Source of the DNA: Candidatus Roseilinea mizusawaensis
GTDB taxonomy: Bacteria; Chloroflexota; Anaerolineae; J036; Brachytrichaceae
Direction: 5' to 3'
Assembly: GCA_016841965.1 (NCBI GenBank)
Contig: JAEANN010000044.1
Location: forward strand, 186,001 to 250,000
Length of the DNA: 64,000 bases
The notes beneath the pieces were generated by a model. That model was not told where the DNA came from. It made no database searches and saw only the letters and a program-made list of their open reading frames with translations. The position numbers were made by a program, and so were the translations under genes. This document shows, in pieces, positions 6,333 through 23,006 of this stretch; the stretch's first letter is position 1, and each line of letters starts with the position of its first letter.

Positions 6333-6453
6333 ATGCAGCCGCGCGACCGACATCTTGTGTCTGAAGGCTGCTATCATGGCGTTATCTCAAACGATTCAAA
6401 CGATGTCGGCAGAGACCTGTTGAACGCTTTTGAGATCTGCAAGGCATCGTAGC

Positions 6454-8013
6454 ATGGATACGGCAATGAGAATGAGTGTGCGGGCGCTTTCACGCGCCGT
6501 GATGGTGTTATTGGCGCTGCTGGTGGTGGCTCTTGGGGCAAATGCTCAGAACACCAGCGTGCTGATGCAAGAGGATTTCGAGGGGCAGTTTGCCAATGAT
6601 CCGAATTGCCAGGACGGCAAATGCAATGTCCCCCAGGGCTGGCGGGTGTGGTTCATCCCACATCGCGATACCGACCCCCAAGGTGTCAACTACCCGCCGG
6701 GATACGGCCAGATCGGCGACGCAAACCGGGTGAAAAGCGGGGCCGGCGCGCAGCGTCTCTTTACAGAGAATCGAACCTTCACCGCCGGCATCTATCGCAT
6801 AGTCAGTAACGTCAAAGTTGGGTCGAAGCTGCGCTTCAGCATGTGGGGGCAATCCTGGTCCACCAACGACAACAGCCCGATTTCAGCCCGTCCCTCGGCT
6901 GACATCAAGCTCAAGATTGGGATCGACCCTGCCGCTGGAGACGACACACAACCCAGCCCGTTTAACGGTCGCGTGGTCTGGTCGACCGAGCAGGATGCCA
7001 AAGACGCTTTTGTGCAGTTTATCGTCGAGGCCGAGGCCAAAACCAGCACGGTCATTGTGTGGACCTATGCCACCATGAAAGATGTGGTGCGACACAATGA
7101 GGTATTTTGGGACGATGCGCTGTTGGAGGTGATCGCGCCGGCTGCGACCGCGCAGACTATGTCTGACACGCCGCCCACTGCTGCTGCCCCGACGCCTGAG
7201 GCAACGGCTATCGGAACAGGCGGCTCTGAAGCATCTGCTGCGCAAATGACCGGCGGCATCACCTACACAGTCAAGGAGGGCGATACCCTGTTTGGCATCG
7301 CGCTGCAATACAACAAGGATCTGGACGAACTGCGCCGGCTGAATCAACTGGATGGCGACTTGTTATCCATCGGCCAGGTGCTGGTGATCGAGCCGCCGGC
7401 GCCGCAGGAGCCGGCGCCTACACAGCCTGCGCCAGATGCCGGCGGAGCTGCCGGCGATCCTGCCGGCGCACAACCCCAGTCGGTTATGGCCGTTGCTCAG
7501 GCCGAGACCACGCCTGTCGCGCAAAATGAGCCTGCGCCGACGCCATCGGTTGGCGCGCTGTGTGTGCAAGCCTATTTCGACAACGACGGCAATGGCGTGC
7601 GCGACCCCGGCGAAGACCTAGTTCCAGGCATTCTGTTCAGTGTCACATCGGGCGGTGAGTCCAAAGGCACATACACCAGCGATGGCGTCAGCGAGCCGTA
7701 TTGCTTTACTGAACTGGCAGTGGGCGCCTACACCGTTGCGGCCGTGATCGGGGCAGACTATGTAGCAACAAGTCCGCTCAACGATACGGCTAACGTCGGC
7801 GGAGGTATGAATGCGCTGTTCTCGCTTGGCATCCGCCGCGCCGACGCAGCTTACAAAGTGATCGAGTACACGCCGACGCCTTCCCCCGCTGCTTCTGGCA
7901 GCGCCGGCGGCCCAAGCCTGCTGGCAATTCTGGCTACGATTAGCGGGGCACTCATCATTCTGGGCGCAGTAGGATTTGGTGTCCTGTTTTTCCTGCAAAG
8001 CCGCCGGCTGTAG
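6454..8013 (+). CDS. LysM-domain surface protein with SdrD-B-like domain and C-terminal anchor
   Basis: About 519 residues, exported. The signal segment (ALSRAVMVLLALLVVALG) is followed by a jelly-roll-like N-terminal domain (about 25-230), a Thr/Pro/Ala linker, a LysM module (about 267-312, YTVKEGDTLFGIALQYNK), a second Pro/Ala-rich linker, an SdrD-B-like beta domain (about 367-465, VQAYFDNDGNGVRDPGED) and one C-terminal membrane helix ending in SRRL. LysM modules bind N-acetylglucosamine polymers, so wall association is likely. I took the ATG at 6454; in-frame TTG (6430) and ATG (6466) starts are possible. It heads a run of envelope genes on this strand. Confidence 0.8.
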   Translation: MDTAMRMSVRALSRAVMVLLALLVVALGANAQNTSVLMQEDFEGQFANDPNCQDGKCNVPQGWRVWFIPHRDTDPQGVNYPPGYGQIGDANRVKSGAGAQRLFTENRTFTAGIYRIVSNVKVGSKLRFSMWGQSWSTNDNSPISARPSADIKLKIGIDPAAGDDTQPSPFNGRVVWSTEQDAKDAFVQFIVEAEAKTSTVIVWTYATMKDVVRHNEVFWDDALLEVIAPAATAQTMSDTPPTAAAPTPEATAIGTGGSEASAAQMTGGITYTVKEGDTLFGIALQYNKDLDELRRLNQLDGDLLSIGQVLVIEPPAPQEPAPTQPAPDAGGAAGDPAGAQPQSVMAVAQAETTPVAQNEPAPTPSVGALCVQAYFDNDGNGVRDPGEDLVPGILFSVTSGGESKGTYTSDGVSEPYCFTELAVGAYTVAAVIGADYVATSPLNDTANVGGGMNALFSLGIRRADAAYKVIEYTPTPSPAASGSAGGPSLLAILATISGALIILGAVGFGVLFFLQSRRL

Positions 8014-12236: not shown

Positions 12237-12307
12237 AGGCTGTTCAGATGGCCGACGCCCCAGATCAGGTATTGGGGCAGGCGTCCGGGTTACAATCATT
12301 CTGGATC

Positions 12308-13705
12308 ATGAGCACGAGTAGCCGGAAATCAGCGCGACGACGTGCGATGTGGCTGACCGGCTTTGTAGCCGGCCTGGCTACAGTCGCGCTCCTGGTGGCA
12401 TGGCTTAACGGGTTGGGGCAGCCGCTGCTCGATGATGTTGTGCCGGCCCCGCCGCCTCGCGAACCTATTGTCAGCGCCATTGATTCAGATACGTGCCGGG
12501 ATCGCCCTGTCGGTGCGCAATATGCAATGGTGTGTGTGGATTCACAATTGCTGAACACAGACGACCCCACCGCGTGCGATCCTTTTGGCGGGCCGTATCA
12601 GATTGTTGTTTGTCCCGACCCATCACAGATCATAACCGGCAACACACGCCCAACCCTGGCAGCCGGCGCGGGAAGTGTGATCCTGCCTTTGCCGCCGGCG
12701 CCGACATCGCCCCCGTTGAGTCCGACGACCACGCCAGAGATGGCTGCGCGCTGGACTGCAACGCCGGCTGACCGAGCTATAGGAGCGTCCGCCCCCGAAG
12801 AAGATATGGGTAGCCCCGCCGCCACGCCGGCTTTAACTCAAACACCTGCTCAGTTGCCGCAGCCGGCGCCACCCCTGCTCGATCCGCTGCAATCGCCGCC
12901 TGGCCCGGCCACAACACCTGCGCCGGCCCCCACACCGATTGACGCACCCACCATCATCGTCATGCCGACCCCAATGCCGACCCAGGTTGAGCTGAATCCC
13001 GACGCCGCAACTGCAACACCGACCCTGGCATCGACGCCCTCTATTGCTCCGGATGTGACGCCCACACCGACCATAGAGGCCGGCCCGACGCCCACCCCGG
13101 CCATGCCCATCACACTCCCCATCGCGTTGCCGGACGAGGGCTATGTGATGACCGGCGCCGGGCAACAGACCACGCCGGGGCTGGTGCTCACATCTACCCG
13201 GCTGCTGCTGGTCAGGTTGATGTACAACGGCGCAGGCAGTGTGGCGGTGTCGGTGCGTGGCGCAAGCGAATCGGCGGGCCGACTCATGTTACAAGCTGCC
13301 GGTCTGCCGGAAAAGAGCGGCGTGATCGATATACCAGACGCCGGCGTCTATTTCATTGACGTGAGCACAACTTCGGGCGGTTCCTGGACTCTGACAGTGA
13401 GCCAGCCGGTTCCGCCGCTGCAAACGCCTTTTACTGCTCCCAATACCTCTCTGAGGGGCTGGGGCGATCAGGCTACCGGCTTTGTGCGACTGCATAGCGG
13501 GGCAATTGCAATACGCTTCGAGCACGCCGGCAGCGGCGCATTTTCCGTGACGTTGTACGACGCCGAAACAGGCCGGCAGGTTGGGTCGCCGCTGGTGCAG
13601 ACAATCGGTCCGTTGCAACAAACTGTGACGCTGCCCATCGCGCGTGAAGGCATCTATGTCTTTGATGTGACCGCTACTGATGTGTGGTCAATCATCATCC
13701 AGTGA
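12308..13705 (+). CDS. Secreted Thr/Pro-linker protein with two beta domains
   Basis: A 465-residue protein: basic N-terminus, one membrane segment (about residues 12-33), a short Cys-containing region, then about 170 residues dominated by Thr, Pro and Ala, and two similar C-terminal beta domains (about 276-372 and 378-465), each ending in an Ile/Val-rich strand pattern (GVYFIDVSTT, GIYVFDVTAT). The domain pair resembles PPC-type beta modules, but I cannot assign a function. The ATG at 12308 was preferred; TACAAT lies 11 nt upstream and no ribosome-binding site is seen. A surface or stalk-like extracellular role is inferred. Confidence 0.7.
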   Translation: MSTSSRKSARRRAMWLTGFVAGLATVALLVAWLNGLGQPLLDDVVPAPPPREPIVSAIDSDTCRDRPVGAQYAMVCVDSQLLNTDDPTACDPFGGPYQIVVCPDPSQIITGNTRPTLAAGAGSVILPLPPAPTSPPLSPTTTPEMAARWTATPADRAIGASAPEEDMGSPAATPALTQTPAQLPQPAPPLLDPLQSPPGPATTPAPAPTPIDAPTIIVMPTPMPTQVELNPDAATATPTLASTPSIAPDVTPTPTIEAGPTPTPAMPITLPIALPDEGYVMTGAGQQTTPGLVLTSTRLLLVRLMYNGAGSVAVSVRGASESAGRLMLQAAGLPEKSGVIDIPDAGVYFIDVSTTSGGSWTLTVSQPVPPLQTPFTAPNTSLRGWGDQATGFVRLHSGAIAIRFEHAGSGAFSVTLYDAETGRQVGSPLVQTIGPLQQTVTLPIAREGIYVFDVTATDVWSIIIQ

Positions 13706-13965
13706 CGCCGGTGCAGGTAGATTCGCCCATTCCAGCCGGCTGCTGTCTCGCCGCCGATTGCTGCCGTTGCGCGTCCCTCTTTCTTGACGCAAATTCAACG
13801 CCGCAGATCGAAAGGCAATCGTAGGGTACGATTCCCATCTCTGTGATACACTCATCTTGTCGCAAGCCTGCTCATCATTAAGAGCGTCGCTGCTCGCTCA
13901 TCAGGGGCAGGTCACGCGCGGGGAACGCATGGTCTGCTGCTGTGACAAAAAAGGATGGGACTTCG

Positions 13966-16900
13966 ATGATCAGGTTTAAGCCTCGACAAACAAGGATTCG
14001 TGGATCAACGTTTCTCCTCGTTTGTCTCGCTTTGGCGATGACGGCCGCCGTCGTCACCGTGATCGTCGCCGCTTCTGGCAGACAGACGCGCTGGGTTGGC
14101 AACATTGCCATCACGGCCGATCAGTTTGTCTACCTGGGTGACGGAAAAACGTATGCCTCGGGCAATGTGCAGTTAGGCGACAAACTGCTCTTGTCCGGCG
14201 CTGACGATCAAGTCGTCTTCGATAGCGAGACGTTAGTCGGTCAGGGCACGCTGAAGCTGACCGATGGCGATCTGGAGCTGTTCAGTGGCCCGTTCACCGC
14301 GTCGGGCAAGACTGGACTAGCCAAACCAGACCCAACGGTCAGTTCCAAGCTCAACCGCATTGCCGGCTTTGCGGTAGCCAGACCGGCCTCCATCACTTAC
14401 GTGAACATCCCTGCGGGAACAGCAGGTGGCACGGGTGACATCGTCATTGCCGCCCCCGGCGTGACGAAAGTGTCCTCGGTCAACTTCCTGTTGCAGCCAG
14501 GCGCAACGTTCATGGGCGAAGTGCCGCCGATGGAGTTCGACCTTGCCGGCGTCATCCTCCAGATTCCTGAAGGCGCGCAGGTGACCGACACCGGCATTTA
14601 CGCCTCCAGGGTCACGCTCCAAATGCCCCCCGAATTGGGTGGTCAGACCACCGTCCTGACCGGGTTCGGGATCACCGCCCAAGGCCTGGTGCTGAGCACA
14701 GGCAACGGCGAGATCACGCTGCCCGATATGTGGATTGGCGATGGCGACTACATCAAGATGTCGGGGATGAAGGGCAAGCTGGTGTATGACGTTCAGGCAA
14801 ACAATTACTTGTTCAACGCAGCCGGAACGCTCGATGTGACGCTGCCGGATAACATGGTGTCCACTCAGGTCCATCTTGAATTGACCTCCGATGGCTACGC
14901 CGCGCAAATCATGGGCCATGTGCCCGGATTTGAGCTGAACGTTGCCGGCGGGTTGATGAAGCTGGGCGAAGTGAACATCACCGGCGCCGGCCTGACTGCC
15001 AAGACGGCTCAGTTCGTGCTTCCTGCCGATCTGGGCGGCGCGTCTATGGCATTGACCGATGTCTACATCGACGGACAGGGCCTGAGCGTTGGGAGCGGCG
15101 ACTTTGCCATCCCAGACGTGATGTTGGCCGATGGCCTGAGCATTAGCGGGGCCAAGGCGCAGTTGTCTGTGATCAACGGTCAATATGCGCTGGCTGCCCA
15201 GGGCACATTGAATGTGATGTTGCCGGAGAACACCCAGGCAACCGCTGTCACATTCGTGATGTCCAAAGATGGAGACATCACAGGCGAAGTGAATGGTCTG
15301 AAGCTCAATTTGGGCGGCGCGGTGCTCGAGTTGGGCGCAACGAAGCTCGGCAGTGCAGGGTTGACCAGTGAATCGGCTGCCATCACAGTCCCGCCAGAAC
15401 TGGGCGGTCTGTCGGCGGCGGTTGATCAAGTGGTCATCGGCGCCGACGGGTTGTCATTTGGCTCGGCAGGTCTTAACGTGATCTTGCCAGACATTGTGCT
15501 GGGCGAAGGGCTAAGCCTTGCCAATAACATGGCAAAGCTGAGCGTCGTCGATTCTGGGCAGAGATTTGCGTTCGATGTAAGCTCGACGCTGGTTGCTGGC
15601 ACGGATAGCGAACCGATTACGTTCGCTATGTCCGCCAATCCGGATGGCAGCGTCGCGTTGAAAGGTACTGCGGGCGCGCTCTCCTTGGACCTGGGCGGCA
15701 TCGTGTTTGGCTTGAACAACGTTGAAGTCACCGGCGAGGGCCTGATGGCAAAGAGCGCCTCAATTGCTTTGCCGGCTGATCTGGGCGGCGGTGTGGCTAC
15801 CGTCAGCGACGTCCTAATTGACGGCTATGGCGTCTCGGTGGCCGGCGGCGCTATTACCCTTCCTGATCTCGTCGTCGTGGATGGGGTGTTGACGCTGACT
15901 GGCGCGCGCCTCGATTTGGGTGTGGCCGACGGCGCCTATGTGGCTTCCGGTCAGGGCACTCTCAATGTCACACTGCCCGGCAACGAGAGGGCAGCTCCGA
16001 TCACCTTCAAGATCAGCGGCGACGGTCAGGTCTCGGCAGAAACCACCGGCCTGATGCTTGATGTCGGCGGCCCGGTGCTCAAACTAGGCCCGGCCAGGTT
16101 GACGGCTGAAGGTTTGAGCGCTGATGAGGCCATGATCACATTGCCGTCTGACCTGGGTGGTCTGTCTGCAACGGTCGATCAGGTGGTCATCGGCGCGAAC
16201 GGCTTGTCGTTCGGCGCGGCCGGCCTCAACATCATCCTGCCTGAAATCCCGTTGGGTGAAGGCCTGGCCTTCACCGATAGCACGGCACAACTGAAGGTGA
16301 TAAACGAGCCGGCAGGTCAAACCTATGCCATGGATGTCGCCTCGTCGTTGAGCATCGGCGAAACGAGTGAGTCCATCAAGTTCACCATGTCCGCGATGCC
16401 GGATGGCAGCGTGTCGATTGACGGGGCCATGAGCGGCTTGGGCATCGACATCGGCGGCGTGGTGCTTAGCCTGATCGATGTGTCGATCTCCAACGACGGT
16501 CTGGCCGCTTCGGCGGCTACGGTGGCGCTGCCGGCCGAGCTTGGCGGTGGCATGACTGCTGTCAAGGATATCCGCATCACCGGCCAGGGCTTGAGCGTTG
16601 GCGGCGGTAGTCTGGTGTTGCCGGAGATTGTGCTGGCTGACGGCGCGATTTCCATCAGCAATGCCACGGCTGATATCGCCGTCGTCGATGGCGCCTATGG
16701 TTTCATGGCTAAGGGCACTTTGGCAACCAACCTGCCCGACATGGCTCAGACCGCGGATGTCACGTTCTCCATCGGCGGCGACGGCCAGATTCAAGGCTCG
16801 GTCTCCGGGCTGAAGCTAAATCTGGGCGGCGTGATGCTGGCCTTGGGCGAAACCAAGCTCAACAGCGAGGGCCTGACTGCTGCGAGCGCGAGCATCCGTG

Positions 16901-17229
16901 TGCCGTTCCTCTTCTCGGCCTCTGTGTCCGATGTGTCCATCGGTGCAAATGGTCTCTCGTTCGGGTCTGGCAACCTGAGCGTGTCATTGCCGGACATCAT
17001 GATCAACTCTGGCTTCGGTTTCACCAAGAACGAGCTGGCGATCAGCTTGACCGGCGCCGGGGCAGTGGTCACGATTGATTCGACAATGATCGCCGAGAGT
17101 GAGCAGCGGCCTGTGCGTCTGACCTTCAACGCTACCGGCAACGAGGTGGCAGCAGCCGGTAATCCAAGCTTCATGATCAATCTGGGCGGCATTATGGTGA
17201 CGCTCAGCGATATGAGCACGCAGAACTGA
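13966..17229 (+). CDS. Giant exported repeat protein with alternating 123/127-residue units
   Basis: A 1087-residue protein starting at the ATG at 13966, with AAAGGATGGG upstream. A single N-terminal membrane or signal segment (about 12-38) precedes a repetitive body. From about residue 220 to the end, seven units of 123-127 residues follow one another. Each has LP.(D/E)LGG, a DV.I.G.GLS turn, LP(D/E)I and a LNLGG closing strand. Units alternate between two types, giving a super-repeat of about 250 residues. The glycine/asparagine turns and regular strands suggest a beta-solenoid or stacked-beta rod. I recognise no family. It is last in the envelope-gene run and is followed by a strong terminator. 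Confidence 0.75.
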   Translation: MIRFKPRQTRIRGSTFLLVCLALAMTAAVVTVIVAASGRQTRWVGNIAITADQFVYLGDGKTYASGNVQLGDKLLLSGADDQVVFDSETLVGQGTLKLTDGDLELFSGPFTASGKTGLAKPDPTVSSKLNRIAGFAVARPASITYVNIPAGTAGGTGDIVIAAPGVTKVSSVNFLLQPGATFMGEVPPMEFDLAGVILQIPEGAQVTDTGIYASRVTLQMPPELGGQTTVLTGFGITAQGLVLSTGNGEITLPDMWIGDGDYIKMSGMKGKLVYDVQANNYLFNAAGTLDVTLPDNMVSTQVHLELTSDGYAAQIMGHVPGFELNVAGGLMKLGEVNITGAGLTAKTAQFVLPADLGGASMALTDVYIDGQGLSVGSGDFAIPDVMLADGLSISGAKAQLSVINGQYALAAQGTLNVMLPENTQATAVTFVMSKDGDITGEVNGLKLNLGGAVLELGATKLGSAGLTSESAAITVPPELGGLSAAVDQVVIGADGLSFGSAGLNVILPDIVLGEGLSLANNMAKLSVVDSGQRFAFDVSSTLVAGTDSEPITFAMSANPDGSVALKGTAGALSLDLGGIVFGLNNVEVTGEGLMAKSASIALPADLGGGVATVSDVLIDGYGVSVAGGAITLPDLVVVDGVLTLTGARLDLGVADGAYVASGQGTLNVTLPGNERAAPITFKISGDGQVSAETTGLMLDVGGPVLKLGPARLTAEGLSADEAMITLPSDLGGLSATVDQVVIGANGLSFGAAGLNIILPEIPLGEGLAFTDSTAQLKVINEPAGQTYAMDVASSLSIGETSESIKFTMSAMPDGSVSIDGAMSGLGIDIGGVVLSLIDVSISNDGLAASAATVALPAELGGGMTAVKDIRITGQGLSVGGGSLVLPEIVLADGAISISNATADIAVVDGAYGFMAKGTLATNLPDMAQTADVTFSIGGDGQIQGSVSGLKLNLGGVMLALGETKLNSEGLTAASASIRVPFLFSASVSDVSIGANGLSFGSGNLSVSLPDIMINSGFGFTKNELAISLTGAGAVVTIDSTMIAESEQRPVRLTFNATGNEVAAAGNPSFMINLGGIMVTLSDMSTQN
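14633..17229 (+). repeat. Coding tandem repeats, about 370-385 bp per unit
   Basis: Unit landmarks (the LGG codons) fall near 14633, 15031, 15400, 15781, 16153, 16540 and 16905. Spacings of 369-398 bp alternate between shorter and longer. Comparing every second unit gives better matches (period 750-760 bp) than comparing neighbours; for example, DQVVIGA.GLSFG recurs only at 15420 and 16173. Confidence 0.8.
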
Positions 17230-17337
17230 CGAGCAATGCAGCGACGCCACGGCTTGTGGCCGTGACTGACTGAGCGTATCTTCCCCCGACGCACAAGCGC
17301 CAGGTCGCTCAGGCAAGGATGCGCAGGTGAGAAACCG

Positions 17338-17378
17338 GGCGCGGCAGTTTGCAAAGCTGCCGCGCCTGCGCTTTTTCT
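17338..17378 (+). terminator. Rho-independent terminator
   Basis: GGCGCGGCAG (17338-17347) pairs perfectly with CTGCCGCGCC (17357-17366) around TTTGCAAAG, followed by TGCGCTTTTTCT. It lies 109 bp after the repeat-protein stop and before glpK, so it ends the envelope-gene transcript. Confidence 0.85.
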
Positions 17379-19036: not shown

Positions 19037-21739
19037 CTAGCCGCGAGTGTCGCCCGGCGCTTGAGATTGCGCCGGCGACGACGGCGCGATAAATTCACGC
19101 GCCAACTCCTGCGCGGCCTTTAGCGCGTCGCGCGCCTCCTCAAACGAGTTCGCGTGAGTCCAGCGATCCTCCAAATCGGCGATGCGCTCCTGCGTCGTGG
19201 CCCAGTTGTTCAGCCGGCCGGTGCTGTGCGCGCTCAGAGTGCGTGCCTGTTGTTCGAGTTGTTTCAACTCATCGTGCAGGCCGCGCAACTCGAGCAGGTT
19301 GTCTTTCAGCGCGTTGACTGCCTGCGTGAGGGGCGCGACAATCGATTCGGCGTCTGATCGGATGCGGCCCAGATCGGCCAGCACAGTTTCGGCAGCGCGC
19401 CTGGATTCTGACTGCAAGAGTTGTGTCAGACGCTCGGTCAGGCCGGCCAACGCGCGGCGAGCCGGCGCCAGCCTGCGCGGCGCCCACATGGCTGCCCCAT
19501 ACGGGCTGCCGTCTTTCTGTAACTGGCCGGCCTGATTGACGAGCGCAGTGGCCTCGCTCAGAATTGCCTCGATTGCGGTTTGTCCCGCCACAAACGCAGA
19601 CTGCTGTTGGCGCATCATAGAGATGTGTTTCTGCGCTTCCAATCGGACGACTTCCCCACTGCTGATCGTCGCCTGCGCCTCGCGCAAAAAGCGCACATCA
19701 GCATTTGCACAGGTCGCCAGCCACTCTTGTATCGCCTGCAATGGCTCCTGTGCGTGGAATTCGAAATCCAGCACCGGCTGGCTGGACAATGACTCCAGCG
19801 CGCCGCGCATCTGCTCCAGCCGTGACTTCAGCCGTGTGAGATCGCCGGTTGCCCGATCCAGTTGCTGCCGGTAACTGTTCAGCGCAGAGGCCAGTTCGTC
19901 GCGCATCCAGGTTGCGCGGGTGATGATGTCGGCCCAGTAGGGCATTGGTTCCTGCGCCAGTTGCCTGAGTTGCTGGTACATCGCAGCAAACTCGCCGGCC
20001 CTGGGCGCCAGTTCGTCGCTGTGCGGCGCGACCAGCTCAAACTCCTCCAGTTGGTGCAGCAACTCCGGGTCGTCGAGCAGATTGCGCGCGCGTTGGGCGT
20101 CGTCTTGCACGCGCGTTTCAACCTGCTCTGTGTCTGCAGCGAGTGTCGCCAGAGCATCTTGCTGTTGCTTGACCTGGGTCACTTGATTCAGCGCTGTGGC
20201 GAACGCGCTTTCCGCAACGGTTGTTAGGTCGGTCACCAGCGCGCGCCAGTTGTTCTTCAGCGCTTCCCCGGCAGCCTGCAATGCGTCGGGCGTGGTGCCG
20301 CTCCAGTAGTTGGGATGGCATGCGCGCAGAATGCCGGCTGCTTTGTCTGCGGCGGCGATGGCGGCGTCGATGGTGCTCTCGTTCAGCGTCTCGGTCTGCT
20401 GCTCCAGCGTCTGGCGATTGGACTCGAAGGTTTGCTGCGCCTGCGCGGCCTGCTTCAGCCAGACATCGAGTTGTTGCTCGATTGTCTGCACGCTGGCCAT
20501 GGCGTCGAGGTCTTCGGAGGGAAGCAGCGCTTCGAGCGATGCGATTGCTTCCTCCACTTGTTGCGCCAGTTTTCTGGTGATATCGCGATCGAACTGGGGA
20601 GGGGTGTCTCGAATCACGGCGCGCATATCTTCCAGTTGAAGGGCTGCCCCGTCACGGGTTGCGGCGACCCGCTCGCGCGCAGCGCGCAGCCGGCGGATTG
20701 TCTCCTGTCCCGCTTGCAGCCCGGCGATCAGGTCGGCCGCCTCGGTTGACAACTCGACATAGCGTCCCTCTGCGAGCGCAAGCTTCAGAGCGTCAAGCTG
20801 CTCGGCAAACGCCCTGGCTTGTTCGGCGAGACGATGACGACGGCAGCCGGCGGCCACATCACTATCGATGTCCTGTTGCAGAGCTGCCAGGTGGTTGCCG
20901 GCGTTCCGCACGTGCGCTTCTGCTGCTTCGCGCGCCGCTACAATCTGTTTCACGTTATTGGCCACTGTTTCCAGGTCGTTTTCCACGTAGGCGCGTAGGG
21001 GGAAGGCTGCCACCACTTGGGTCTCATCGGGTTGCTCGGCCTGCAACAAATGTTCGATCGTGTCGAGCGACTGGCTGGCGTGCGCCATCAGACGGCGCTG
21101 GTCTTCGAGCAGTAGTGCCGGGCGCGTCTCTGCCTCAATGCTGGCCGTCAACTCAAGCGCCTTCTGTCGCAATTGTGCAGCGAACATCTTTTCGCGCTGG
21201 CCGAGGGTGGCAATCTCGTCCCTCAGCGCCTCGACTTGAGCGACCCCCTCGGTTGCCGGCCCGACTTCGTCGACGATAGCATCCATCTCGCGCTGCTGGC
21301 GCTGGCGTTGTCTGATCTCGGCGGCCAGTGGAAACAAGAGCAGCGCCTTCAGCACGGACTGGTCAGGGATGTCCTGCAACGCATTTTGTTCGATGCGCTG
21401 CAGCAATCTGTCGATGGCGCCGAAGCCATTCTCGATCAACTGTTGCGCGCGGTCATGCAAAGACTTGTAAGGCTCGCCGTGTCTGCCGTTGCCGAGGGCT
21501 ATCGATAACTCGGTCAGCCGGCTGCGGGCATTGACCAGCCGGTCAAGGGCCTGTTGCTTGTTCTCGCGCCACCGATTGCGCCGCCTGCGCGCCCGGCTTA
21601 CCAGGATCATCTCGGCTACGACGATAGCGATGTAAATGACGGTCACGATCAACACGATGGCAAGCGTGACGTTGGTGGTGTTGGGCTGATAGGTGCCCGA
21701 TAGGACAAGTGCGCCGGCAGGCATCGTGAATACAGACAT
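19037..21739 (-). CDS. Membrane-anchored giant coiled-coil protein (EzrA-like topology)
   Basis: A 900-residue protein. The ATG at 21739 has AGGAGG upstream. A short outside N-terminus is followed by one membrane helix (residues about 22-45, VTLAIVLIVTVIYIAIVVAEM), a basic stop-transfer (RARRRRNRWR), and then about 830 residues of Ala/Glu/Gln/Leu/Arg-rich heptad-like sequence broken by prolines into several helical bundles. Topology and length pattern recall EzrA, the spectrin-like septation regulator, but I see no specific signature, and other membrane-bound coiled-coil scaffolds fit equally well. It lies 100 bp downstream of dgt on the same strand and ends convergently with glpK. Confidence 0.7.
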   Translation of the reverse strand: MSVFTMPAGALVLSGTYQPNTTNVTLAIVLIVTVIYIAIVVAEMILVSRARRRRNRWRENKQQALDRLVNARSRLTELSIALGNGRHGEPYKSLHDRAQQLIENGFGAIDRLLQRIEQNALQDIPDQSVLKALLLFPLAAEIRQRQRQQREMDAIVDEVGPATEGVAQVEALRDEIATLGQREKMFAAQLRQKALELTASIEAETRPALLLEDQRRLMAHASQSLDTIEHLLQAEQPDETQVVAAFPLRAYVENDLETVANNVKQIVAAREAAEAHVRNAGNHLAALQQDIDSDVAAGCRRHRLAEQARAFAEQLDALKLALAEGRYVELSTEAADLIAGLQAGQETIRRLRAARERVAATRDGAALQLEDMRAVIRDTPPQFDRDITRKLAQQVEEAIASLEALLPSEDLDAMASVQTIEQQLDVWLKQAAQAQQTFESNRQTLEQQTETLNESTIDAAIAAADKAAGILRACHPNYWSGTTPDALQAAGEALKNNWRALVTDLTTVAESAFATALNQVTQVKQQQDALATLAADTEQVETRVQDDAQRARNLLDDPELLHQLEEFELVAPHSDELAPRAGEFAAMYQQLRQLAQEPMPYWADIITRATWMRDELASALNSYRQQLDRATGDLTRLKSRLEQMRGALESLSSQPVLDFEFHAQEPLQAIQEWLATCANADVRFLREAQATISSGEVVRLEAQKHISMMRQQQSAFVAGQTAIEAILSEATALVNQAGQLQKDGSPYGAAMWAPRRLAPARRALAGLTERLTQLLQSESRRAAETVLADLGRIRSDAESIVAPLTQAVNALKDNLLELRGLHDELKQLEQQARTLSAHSTGRLNNWATTQERIADLEDRWTHANSFEEARDALKAAQELAREFIAPSSPAQSQAPGDTRG

Positions 21740-21839
21740 GCTCGCCTCCTGAAAGGTCGGCACAGATTGACCTGTGCCGAATGATTGCCCCGAGTGTAGC
21801 AGCCTCCGGCAAACTGCATCTCTGCAGGAGGCCAGCGTA

Positions 21840-23006
21840 TCAAACGCGCTCGTGCGGGTCGAAGAGCCGGGCGTACTCGTCGAGTGCAAAGCGGTCAGTC
21901 ATGCCCGCGATGTAATCGCACACCACACGCTCGCGGGGGGTATACGCCAACCGGGCGCGCGTTGCTTGTGGCAGGATGCGTGGCTCGGCCAGATACGCGC
22001 CGAACAAGTCGGCGATCACGCGCTGGGCCTTTGTCTGCATGCGCAACACGCGCGGATGTTCGTACAAGTTGCGATACAGGAAGGTTTTTAGCTCGCGGTT
22101 CATGGCTTGTGTGTCTGGTGGAAAGCCAACCAGATTGTGCGCCTGGCGCCGAACATCGTCCACATTGGCGACGCCGGCCTGTTTGATCTGCTGTGAGGTG
22201 TGGCGAACAAGGTCCGTCACCATTTGGCCGATCAACTTGCGAATCACGCGATGGCGTTTCAGATCGTTGAATGACTCTTCGGCAGGCACCGCTGCTGCGT
22301 CGCGGGCGCGTTGCCACCATGCCAGCCGGCTTACTTGTTCGACGTCGAGCAGGCCGGCGCGCAGTCCGTCGTCCAGGTCGTGCGTGTTGTAGGCCAGTTC
22401 GTCGGCGAACGAAGCGATCTGCGATTCGAGCGAGCCGCGCCGGTCGATCTCGTAAGCTTCAGCGCCTTCGGGTCGCACAACGTCGTACTCTGTCTCGTGT
22501 TTCACGATCCCTTCGCGAAACTCATAGGTCAGGTTCAGGCCGGGGAAATCAGGATAGCGCCGTTCCAGCTCTGTGATGATGCGGAAGCTGTGATGATTGT
22601 GGTTAAAGCCGCCGTGATGCTGCATCAGTTCGCTCAGTCGGGCTTCGCCAGAATGGCCGAACGGCGGATGCCCCAGGTCGTGCGCCAAGCAGATGCCTTC
22701 GACAAGGTCCTCGTTGGCGCCCAGCGCGCGCGCAATGGTGCGGCCAATCTGCGCCACTTCCAGCGTATGGGTGATGCGTGTGCGATAGTAGTCGCCCTCG
22801 GTCACGATGAACACCTGCGTCTTGCCTTGCAGCCGGCGAAAGGCTGTGGTGTGCAACACCCGCTCGCGGTCGCGCTGGAAGGCTGTGCGATACAGCGCCT
22901 CCGGCTCGACGAATGCGCGCCCGCGCGACTCGGCGCTTTTTACCGCGTAGGGCGCGAGATAGGCCGCTTCAATCTGTTCGAGTTGTTCGCGTGTTCTCAT
23001 GGCCAT
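21840..23006 (-). CDS. dgt: dGTP triphosphohydrolase-like HD protein
   Basis: A 388-residue HD-domain protein expected to hydrolyse dGTP (or other dNTPs) to the nucleoside and triphosphate. The metal-binding pattern is intact: RITHTLEVAQIGR near residue 80, AHDLGHPPFGHSGE near 110, and a later SFADELAYNTHDLDDG near 195. Length and the FRRLQGKTQVF segment match the dGTPase-like (type 2) family. The protein begins MAMR, and either Met may start it. The divergent tRNA-Gln gene starts 41 bp upstream. The coiled-coil gene follows on the same strand. Confidence 0.92.
   Translation of the reverse strand: MAMRTREQLEQIEAAYLAPYAVKSAESRGRAFVEPEALYRTAFQRDRERVLHTTAFRRLQGKTQVFIVTEGDYYRTRITHTLEVAQIGRTIARALGANEDLVEGICLAHDLGHPPFGHSGEARLSELMQHHGGFNHNHHSFRIITELERRYPDFPGLNLTYEFREGIVKHETEYDVVRPEGAEAYEIDRRGSLESQIASFADELAYNTHDLDDGLRAGLLDVEQVSRLAWWQRARDAAAVPAEESFNDLKRHRVIRKLIGQMVTDLVRHTSQQIKQAGVANVDDVRRQAHNLVGFPPDTQAMNRELKTFLYRNLYEHPRVLRMQTKAQRVIADLFGAYLAEPRILPQATRARLAYTPRERVVCDYIAGMTDRFALDEYARLFDPHERV

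What the first reader, a model, noticed from the sequence alone, without database searches (positions are those of the whole stretch)
13966..17229. Unrecognised 1087-residue exported rod with an alternating dimeric repeat
Seven units of 123-127 residues alternate between two subtypes; like units (750-760 bp apart) match better than neighbours. Each repeats LP.(D/E)LGG, a G.GLS turn, LP(D/E)I and LNLGG. This is a higher-order repeat produced by duplication of a pair. I know no family with this pattern; it may be a new beta-solenoid or stacked-sheet surface fibre.
Basis: seen in the sequence. Interest (0 to 1): 0.65.

Follow-up and report, generated by a model that had tools for sequence, protein, structure and literature searches.

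The report
Unnamed repeat rod of Chloroflexota bacteria
This gene encodes an exported-looking, all-beta rod built from seven copies of a roughly 125-residue unit that no protein-family library searched here names; larger Chloroflexota proteins carry the same rod between likely binding domains, so it is most likely a stiff surface stalk.

Summary
The ORF at 13966-17229 (1087 aa) has an N-terminal hydrophobic segment, a ~155-residue N-cap, seven tandem units of ~107-130 residues and a short final strand. Units 2-7 run A-B-A-B-A-B; unit 1 is a third type. Pair duplication is supported by a tree of units, not by order alone. The gene is under purifying selection.

Profiles of 41 units and 21 N-caps hit no curated family or solved structure; the best solved-structure match to the units is TamB at a non-significant E = 0.53. 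The module is a family: it occurs in 33 of 396 genomes sampled from the class and in two families outside it. Elsewhere it usually sits inside exported-looking proteins of about 1,400-4,200 residues, flanked by beta-propeller, NosD-like, DUF11, DUF4397, fn3 or PKD domains. AlphaFold2 gives a confident all-beta array (pLDDT 86-88) without a significant match; LptD jellyrolls are nearest, weakly. The genome lacks Omp85, TamB and LptD_N hits.

Best reading: a rigid exported stalk. A groove-bearing lipid rod is possible but unproven. Surface location and fibre formation are inferred.

The parts
13966..17229 (+). Whole rod gene, 1087 aa (alternative GTG start at 13942)
   Evidence: dN/dS about 0.16-0.19 against L016
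14005..14073 (+). Hydrophobic segment, residues 14-36: signal peptide or membrane anchor (inferred by eye)
   Evidence: sequence read; no signal-peptide program available
14074..14541 (+). N-cap, residues 37-192
   Evidence: N-cap HMM and alignment A5 shared with about 20 relatives; LptD-like local structural match
14542..14931 (+). Unit 1, residues 193-322, first-unit type
   Evidence: unit HMM 106 bits; tree
14941..15300 (+). Unit 2, residues 326-445, type A
   Evidence: unit HMM 124 bits; tree
15310..15666 (+). Unit 3, residues 449-567, type B
   Evidence: unit HMM 82 bits; tree
15691..16053 (+). Unit 4, residues 576-696, type A
   Evidence: unit HMM 106 bits; tree
16063..16437 (+). Unit 5, residues 700-824, type B
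   Evidence: unit HMM 91 bits; tree
16450..16812 (+). Unit 6, residues 829-949, type A
   Evidence: unit HMM 117 bits; tree
16822..17142 (+). Unit 7, residues 953-1059, type B, lacks the LP.(D/E)LGG turn
   Evidence: unit HMM 66 bits; tree
17143..17229 (+). C-terminal end, start of an eighth unit (INLGGIMVTL) then stop; same end in L016
17336..17368 (+). Terminator-like hairpin, 15 pairs, followed by T-run
   Evidence: consensus scan; not evidence of function by itself

Best explanation
The gene encodes an exported, rigid, all-beta stalk. The N-terminal hydrophobic segment sends it through the membrane, either as a cleaved signal peptide or as a retained anchor. The N-cap starts the beta-structure, and seven tandem units extend it head to tail into one continuous rod rather than a string of separate beads. 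Growth in length came by duplicating pairs of units. In larger relatives the same N-cap plus units separates an N-terminal domain (propeller, beta-helix-like, DUF11) from C-terminal fn3, DUF4397 or PKD domains, so it works there as a spacer holding binding domains away from the cell. The stand-alone form studied here would be a bare rod in the cell envelope or on its surface. Shown: ORF, repeats, purifying selection, family, architectures, confident all-beta prediction. Inferred: export, rigidity, surface exposure, spacer function.
For: Seven units and N-cap; purifying selection against the 85% relative; N-cap found just before the units in most relatives; flanking domains in relatives; AlphaFold2 pLDDT 85.8 and 87.7, pTM 0.68 and 0.76, about 70% strand; rod composition without cysteine, 14.5% Gly, 11.5% Ala, 3.4% Lys+Arg; no Omp85, TamB or LptD_N in the genome; precedent for a giant repeat surface filament in the phylum, GhlA of Litorilinea aerophila, made of DUF11 repeats (PMC13319060).
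Against: No coordinates could be inspected, so rigidity and length are not measured. No wall- or surface-anchoring motif was recognised in this protein. The stand-alone form has no binding domain, so a spacer role is less obvious for it than for its relatives. A long C-terminal region present in many relatives is missing here. Weak hints point to groove folds instead (TamB, LptD).
Confidence: 0.6

Rival explanations
1. The rod is a groove-bearing lipid or glycolipid conduit, working like LptA polymers or TamB: stacked units form an open taco-shaped beta-sheet whose hydrophobic inside carries lipid tails through the envelope.
For: Best, non-significant, profile hit of the unit is TamB, E 0.53; hhalign scores TamB at 22.3 against 9-18 for other proteins and shuffles, but only 1.9% probability. 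LptD chains lead both structural searches of the N-cap-containing model; 69-71 N-cap residues fit the LptD jellyroll region at 2.3-2.4 A, Z 6.2-6.5, and the three-unit model's best row is an LptD model, 56 residues, 3.2 A, Z 5.6. Some Chloroflexota show diderm-like envelopes in tomograms (PMC13319060).
Against: No match is significant, and Z under 8 is common by chance. The genome has no Omp85, TamB or LptD_N hit, so the known receiving side is absent. N-cap and unit profiles do not match E. coli LptA, LptC or LptD by hhalign. Relatives embed the rod between extracellular-type domains.
Confidence: 0.15
2. The protein is a building block of one of the proteinaceous outer layers described in Chloroflexota, a lattice or S-layer-like coat, rather than a single projecting stalk.
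For: Cryo-tomography of Litorilinea aerophila shows an inner layer, an outer layer and a lattice-like protein layer of unknown composition (PMC13319060). The rod is exported-looking, cysteine-free and repetitive.
Against: Patchy occurrence: 33 of 396 genomes of the class, 5 of 28 in the family; a main coat protein would be expected to be more widespread. One copy only in this genome. No S-layer homology domain was found.
Confidence: 0.15
3. The reading frame is a degenerate or spurious repeat without function.
For: Order of unit types alone is not strongly non-random (5.8% of orders).
Against: dN/dS about 0.16-0.19 against an 85% relative with the same seven units and the same end; family across many genera; confident structure prediction.
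Confidence: 0.02

Closest known systems
GhlA, grappling-hook filament protein of Litorilinea aerophila (6,596 aa, 49 DUF11 repeats; PMC13319060)
   Same: Giant repeat-built protein of a Chloroflexota bacterium with an N-terminal hydrophobic stretch, forming a projecting filament.
   Different: Its repeats are DUF11, Ig-like beads on a string; the rod unit here is unrelated in sequence (no DUF11 hit in P0001 or its units) and predicted as one array. DUF11 occurs only as a separate flanking domain in some relatives.
Lpt beta-jellyroll proteins (LptA, LptC, N-terminal LptD; PF03968 LptD_N)
   Same: All-beta modules that can stack head to tail into a continuous rod (PMC6164715); nearest structural rows for the N-cap.
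   Different: No sequence or profile match; structural match partial and under the usual cut; no LptD_N or Omp85 in this genome.
TamB / AsmA-like repeating beta-groove proteins (PF04357)
   Same: Long all-beta repeat proteins with an N-terminal membrane segment; TamB is the best, non-significant, profile hit.
   Different: E 0.53 and 1.9% probability are not significant; no AsmA or TamB Pfam hit in protein or units; groove not shown.
Ig-like, fn3 and PKD stalk adhesins of bacteria
   Same: Same presumed job: repeated beta units that space binding domains from the cell.
   Different: The unit is longer (~125 aa), matches none of these Pfam families at cut-off, and three units are predicted in a defined mutual arrangement (pTM 0.76).

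Membership tests
Lpt beta-jellyroll (LptA/LptD_N, PF03968) | Profile match to LptD_N/OstA | tested here: not met
   No PF03968 hit for P0001, 41 units or 10 N-caps; own genome has no hit while six control genomes do.
Lpt beta-jellyroll (LptA/LptD_N, PF03968) | Twisted beta-jellyroll fold | tested here: inconclusive
   N-cap residues fit the LptD jellyroll over 69-71 residues at 2.3-2.4 A, Z 6.2-6.5; Foldseek E 0.002-0.018 with TM-scores about 0.1.
Lpt beta-jellyroll (LptA/LptD_N, PF03968) | Binds lipid A in a hydrophobic groove | not testable with these tools
   No coordinates or ligand data available.
TamB / AsmA-like repeating beta-groove | Profile match to TamB or AsmA domains | tested here: not met
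   No Pfam hit; PDB profile hit TamB E 0.53; hhalign probability 1.9%.
TamB / AsmA-like repeating beta-groove | Continuous hydrophobic groove along the rod | not testable with these tools
   Model coordinates are not exposed; only secondary structure and confidence were read.
TamB / AsmA-like repeating beta-groove | Partner outer-membrane machinery (Omp85) | tested here: not met
   No PF01103 in a 99% complete genome, with seven control genomes ringing.
DUF11 / Ig-like stalk proteins | Repeat unit matches DUF11, fn3, PKD or Big families | tested here: not met
   No such hit in P0001; only scattered sub-threshold hits in single units.
S-layer proteins | SLH or other S-layer domain | tested here: not met
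   No Pfam or NCBIfam S-layer hit in P0001.
S-layer proteins | Lattice assembly on the cell surface | not testable with these tools
   Needs microscopy.
New module defined here (N-cap plus units) | N-cap immediately followed by one or more units of ~124 positions | tested here: met
   Unit HMM and N-cap HMM on relatives; 33 of 396 class genomes with the unit.

The most novel reading that the evidence does not exclude
A covalently fused, LptA- or TamB-like groove rod in bacteria without recognised outer-membrane machinery, carrying lipids or glycolipids through, or helping to build, the diderm-like layered envelope of some Chloroflexota.
Probability: 0.08. Interest if true: 0.85.

Novelty: new variant of a known kind. 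Interest (0 to 1): 0.45.

Why it matters
The layers outside the cytoplasmic membrane of Chloroflexota are of unknown composition (PMC13319060). A patchy family of exported-looking beta-rods, found in several Chloroflexota families and absent from Pfam and NCBIfam as searched here, gives candidates for envelope or surface structures, a ready domain model for annotating very long proteins of this phylum, and a testable question: structural stalk or lipid-bearing groove.

Tried and rejected
Pfam, NCBIfam and PDB sequence searches of the whole protein: nothing significant. DUF5980, DUF2997 and similar Pfam hits rejected as below their curated cut-offs and inconsistent between units. Plasmid and phage records: no match. 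Viral contigs could not be scanned with the unit alignment because no stretch was conserved enough. Structural searches of the three-unit model in PDB and viral libraries: best E 0.019 and 0.016, TM-scores 0.2 or less, rows mostly propeller-type proteins and OspA sheets over short or badly fitting stretches; no fold is claimed or excluded from these. A C-terminal YLP..R-type motif sought in the own genome: no exact match. Absence of the rod in the third genus member (G002) is uninformative, since its contig ends next to the upstream neighbour. Occurrence outside Chloroflexota was not tested with the unit profile. Permutation of unit order as proof of alternation was dropped as too weak. An LptA/OstA-like repeat in the N-cap, suspected by eye, found no sequence support.

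Full report
What is there. Window 13966-17229 (+) encodes 1087 residues. The ATG at 13966 has an AAGGA sequence about 11 bases upstream; a GTG at 13942 is an alternative start. The protein begins with basic residues and a hydrophobic stretch (residues 14-36), compatible with a signal peptide or an uncleaved anchor; no signal-peptide program was available, so export is inferred. Residues 37-192 form an N-cap, and seven units follow. The last 28 residues begin an eighth unit and stop. The 85%-identical relative ends at the same point, so the end is not a local break. A stem-loop with a T-run follows at 17336-17368, before a glycerol-kinase-like ORF (named by eye).

Repeat structure. Unit 1 is a type of its own; units 2-7 alternate A-B-A-B-A-B. 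In a tree of 50 units from seven proteins the B units of this protein and its close relative group with 98/99 support and join a B unit of the more distant relative L011 with 97/98; the A units group with two L011 units at 91/90. The A/B split is therefore older than the split from L011, and pairs were duplicated later. Other members show their own block duplications: L048 units 7/9 and 8/10, a pair; L047 units 5/8 and 6/9, neighbours copied together three units apart. Order of types alone is weak statistical evidence.

Family. Profiles from 41 units (A3) and 21 N-caps (A5) match no Pfam family at a curated cut-off and no solved structure significantly. The same unit was found in 33 of 396 genomes sampled from the class, 26 of 222 genera, in 5 of 28 genomes of the family, and in two families outside the class. 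The one named relative is an uncultured Anaerolineae bacterium. N-cap plus units recur together in most members examined. N-cap and unit profiles resemble each other (hhalign 76% probability), so the N-cap may be made of divergent units.

Architecture. In this protein, its 85% relative and L011 the rod stands alone. In other members it lies inside exported-looking proteins of up to 4,172 residues, after propeller-like, NosD-like or DUF11 regions and before DUF4397, fn3, PKD or DUF11 domains. That is the main reason to read the rod as a spacer.

Structure. AlphaFold2 on N-cap plus three units gave pLDDT 85.8 and pTM 0.68 with 28 sequences; on three units pLDDT 87.7 and pTM 0.76 with 44 sequences. 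About 70% of residues are strand, and the LP..LGG motif is a short helical turn; 15 of 32 strands are strongly amphipathic against 8.3 on average in shuffles, which fits a one-sided hydrophobic face but does not tell a closed core from a groove. A pTM of 0.76 for three units suggests a fixed arrangement of neighbours, not loose beads; this is inference, since coordinates could not be inspected. Structural searches gave no significant match. LptD chains were nearest to the N-cap, over about 70 residues at 2.3-2.4 A.

How it most likely works. An exported rod, either bare or as the stalk of a larger protein. The conduit reading rests on weak hints (TamB, LptD) and is weakened by the absence of Omp85, TamB and LptD_N in a 99% complete genome, each search with control genomes that do ring. 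The literature read here describes Chloroflexota as lacking outer-membrane markers while showing layered, sometimes diderm-like envelopes of unknown composition (PMC13319060).

Verdict.

Noticed in passing
L012, L013, L014, L015, L048, L050, L055, L061, L079: C-termini of the long relatives: Many long relatives end in a short motif such as YLPLVMRR, YLPLIMK, VYLPVVTR or IWMPLVGR, a possible sorting or anchoring signal; this protein lacks it and an exact pattern scan of the own genome found none.
   Followed up: partly
L012, L013, L014, L015 after the unit array: Similar-looking sequence follows the last unit in several long relatives (for example IPIGNTGFFLTSISGKVTL in L012) and has no Pfam match; it is missing from the stand-alone rod.
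   Followed up: no
window 12248-13705: Exported-looking protein of 485 aa with a Pro/Thr-rich middle and two similar beta-rich C-terminal stretches (by eye), no Pfam hit; conserved next to the rod in the 85% relative.
   Followed up: partly
window 6430-8013: Protein with LysM and SdrD_B-like domains and a C-terminal hydrophobic segment, in the same gene run as the rod.
   Followed up: no
window 19037-21889: 950-aa protein on the minus strand with an N-terminal membrane segment and long coiled-coil-like sequence, EzrA-like by eye; no Pfam hit above cut-off.
   Followed up: no
L061 4017-8921 and 8899-15216: Two adjoining minus-strand ORFs of this family overlap slightly, as if one long gene were split by a frameshift or assembly error.
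   Followed up: no
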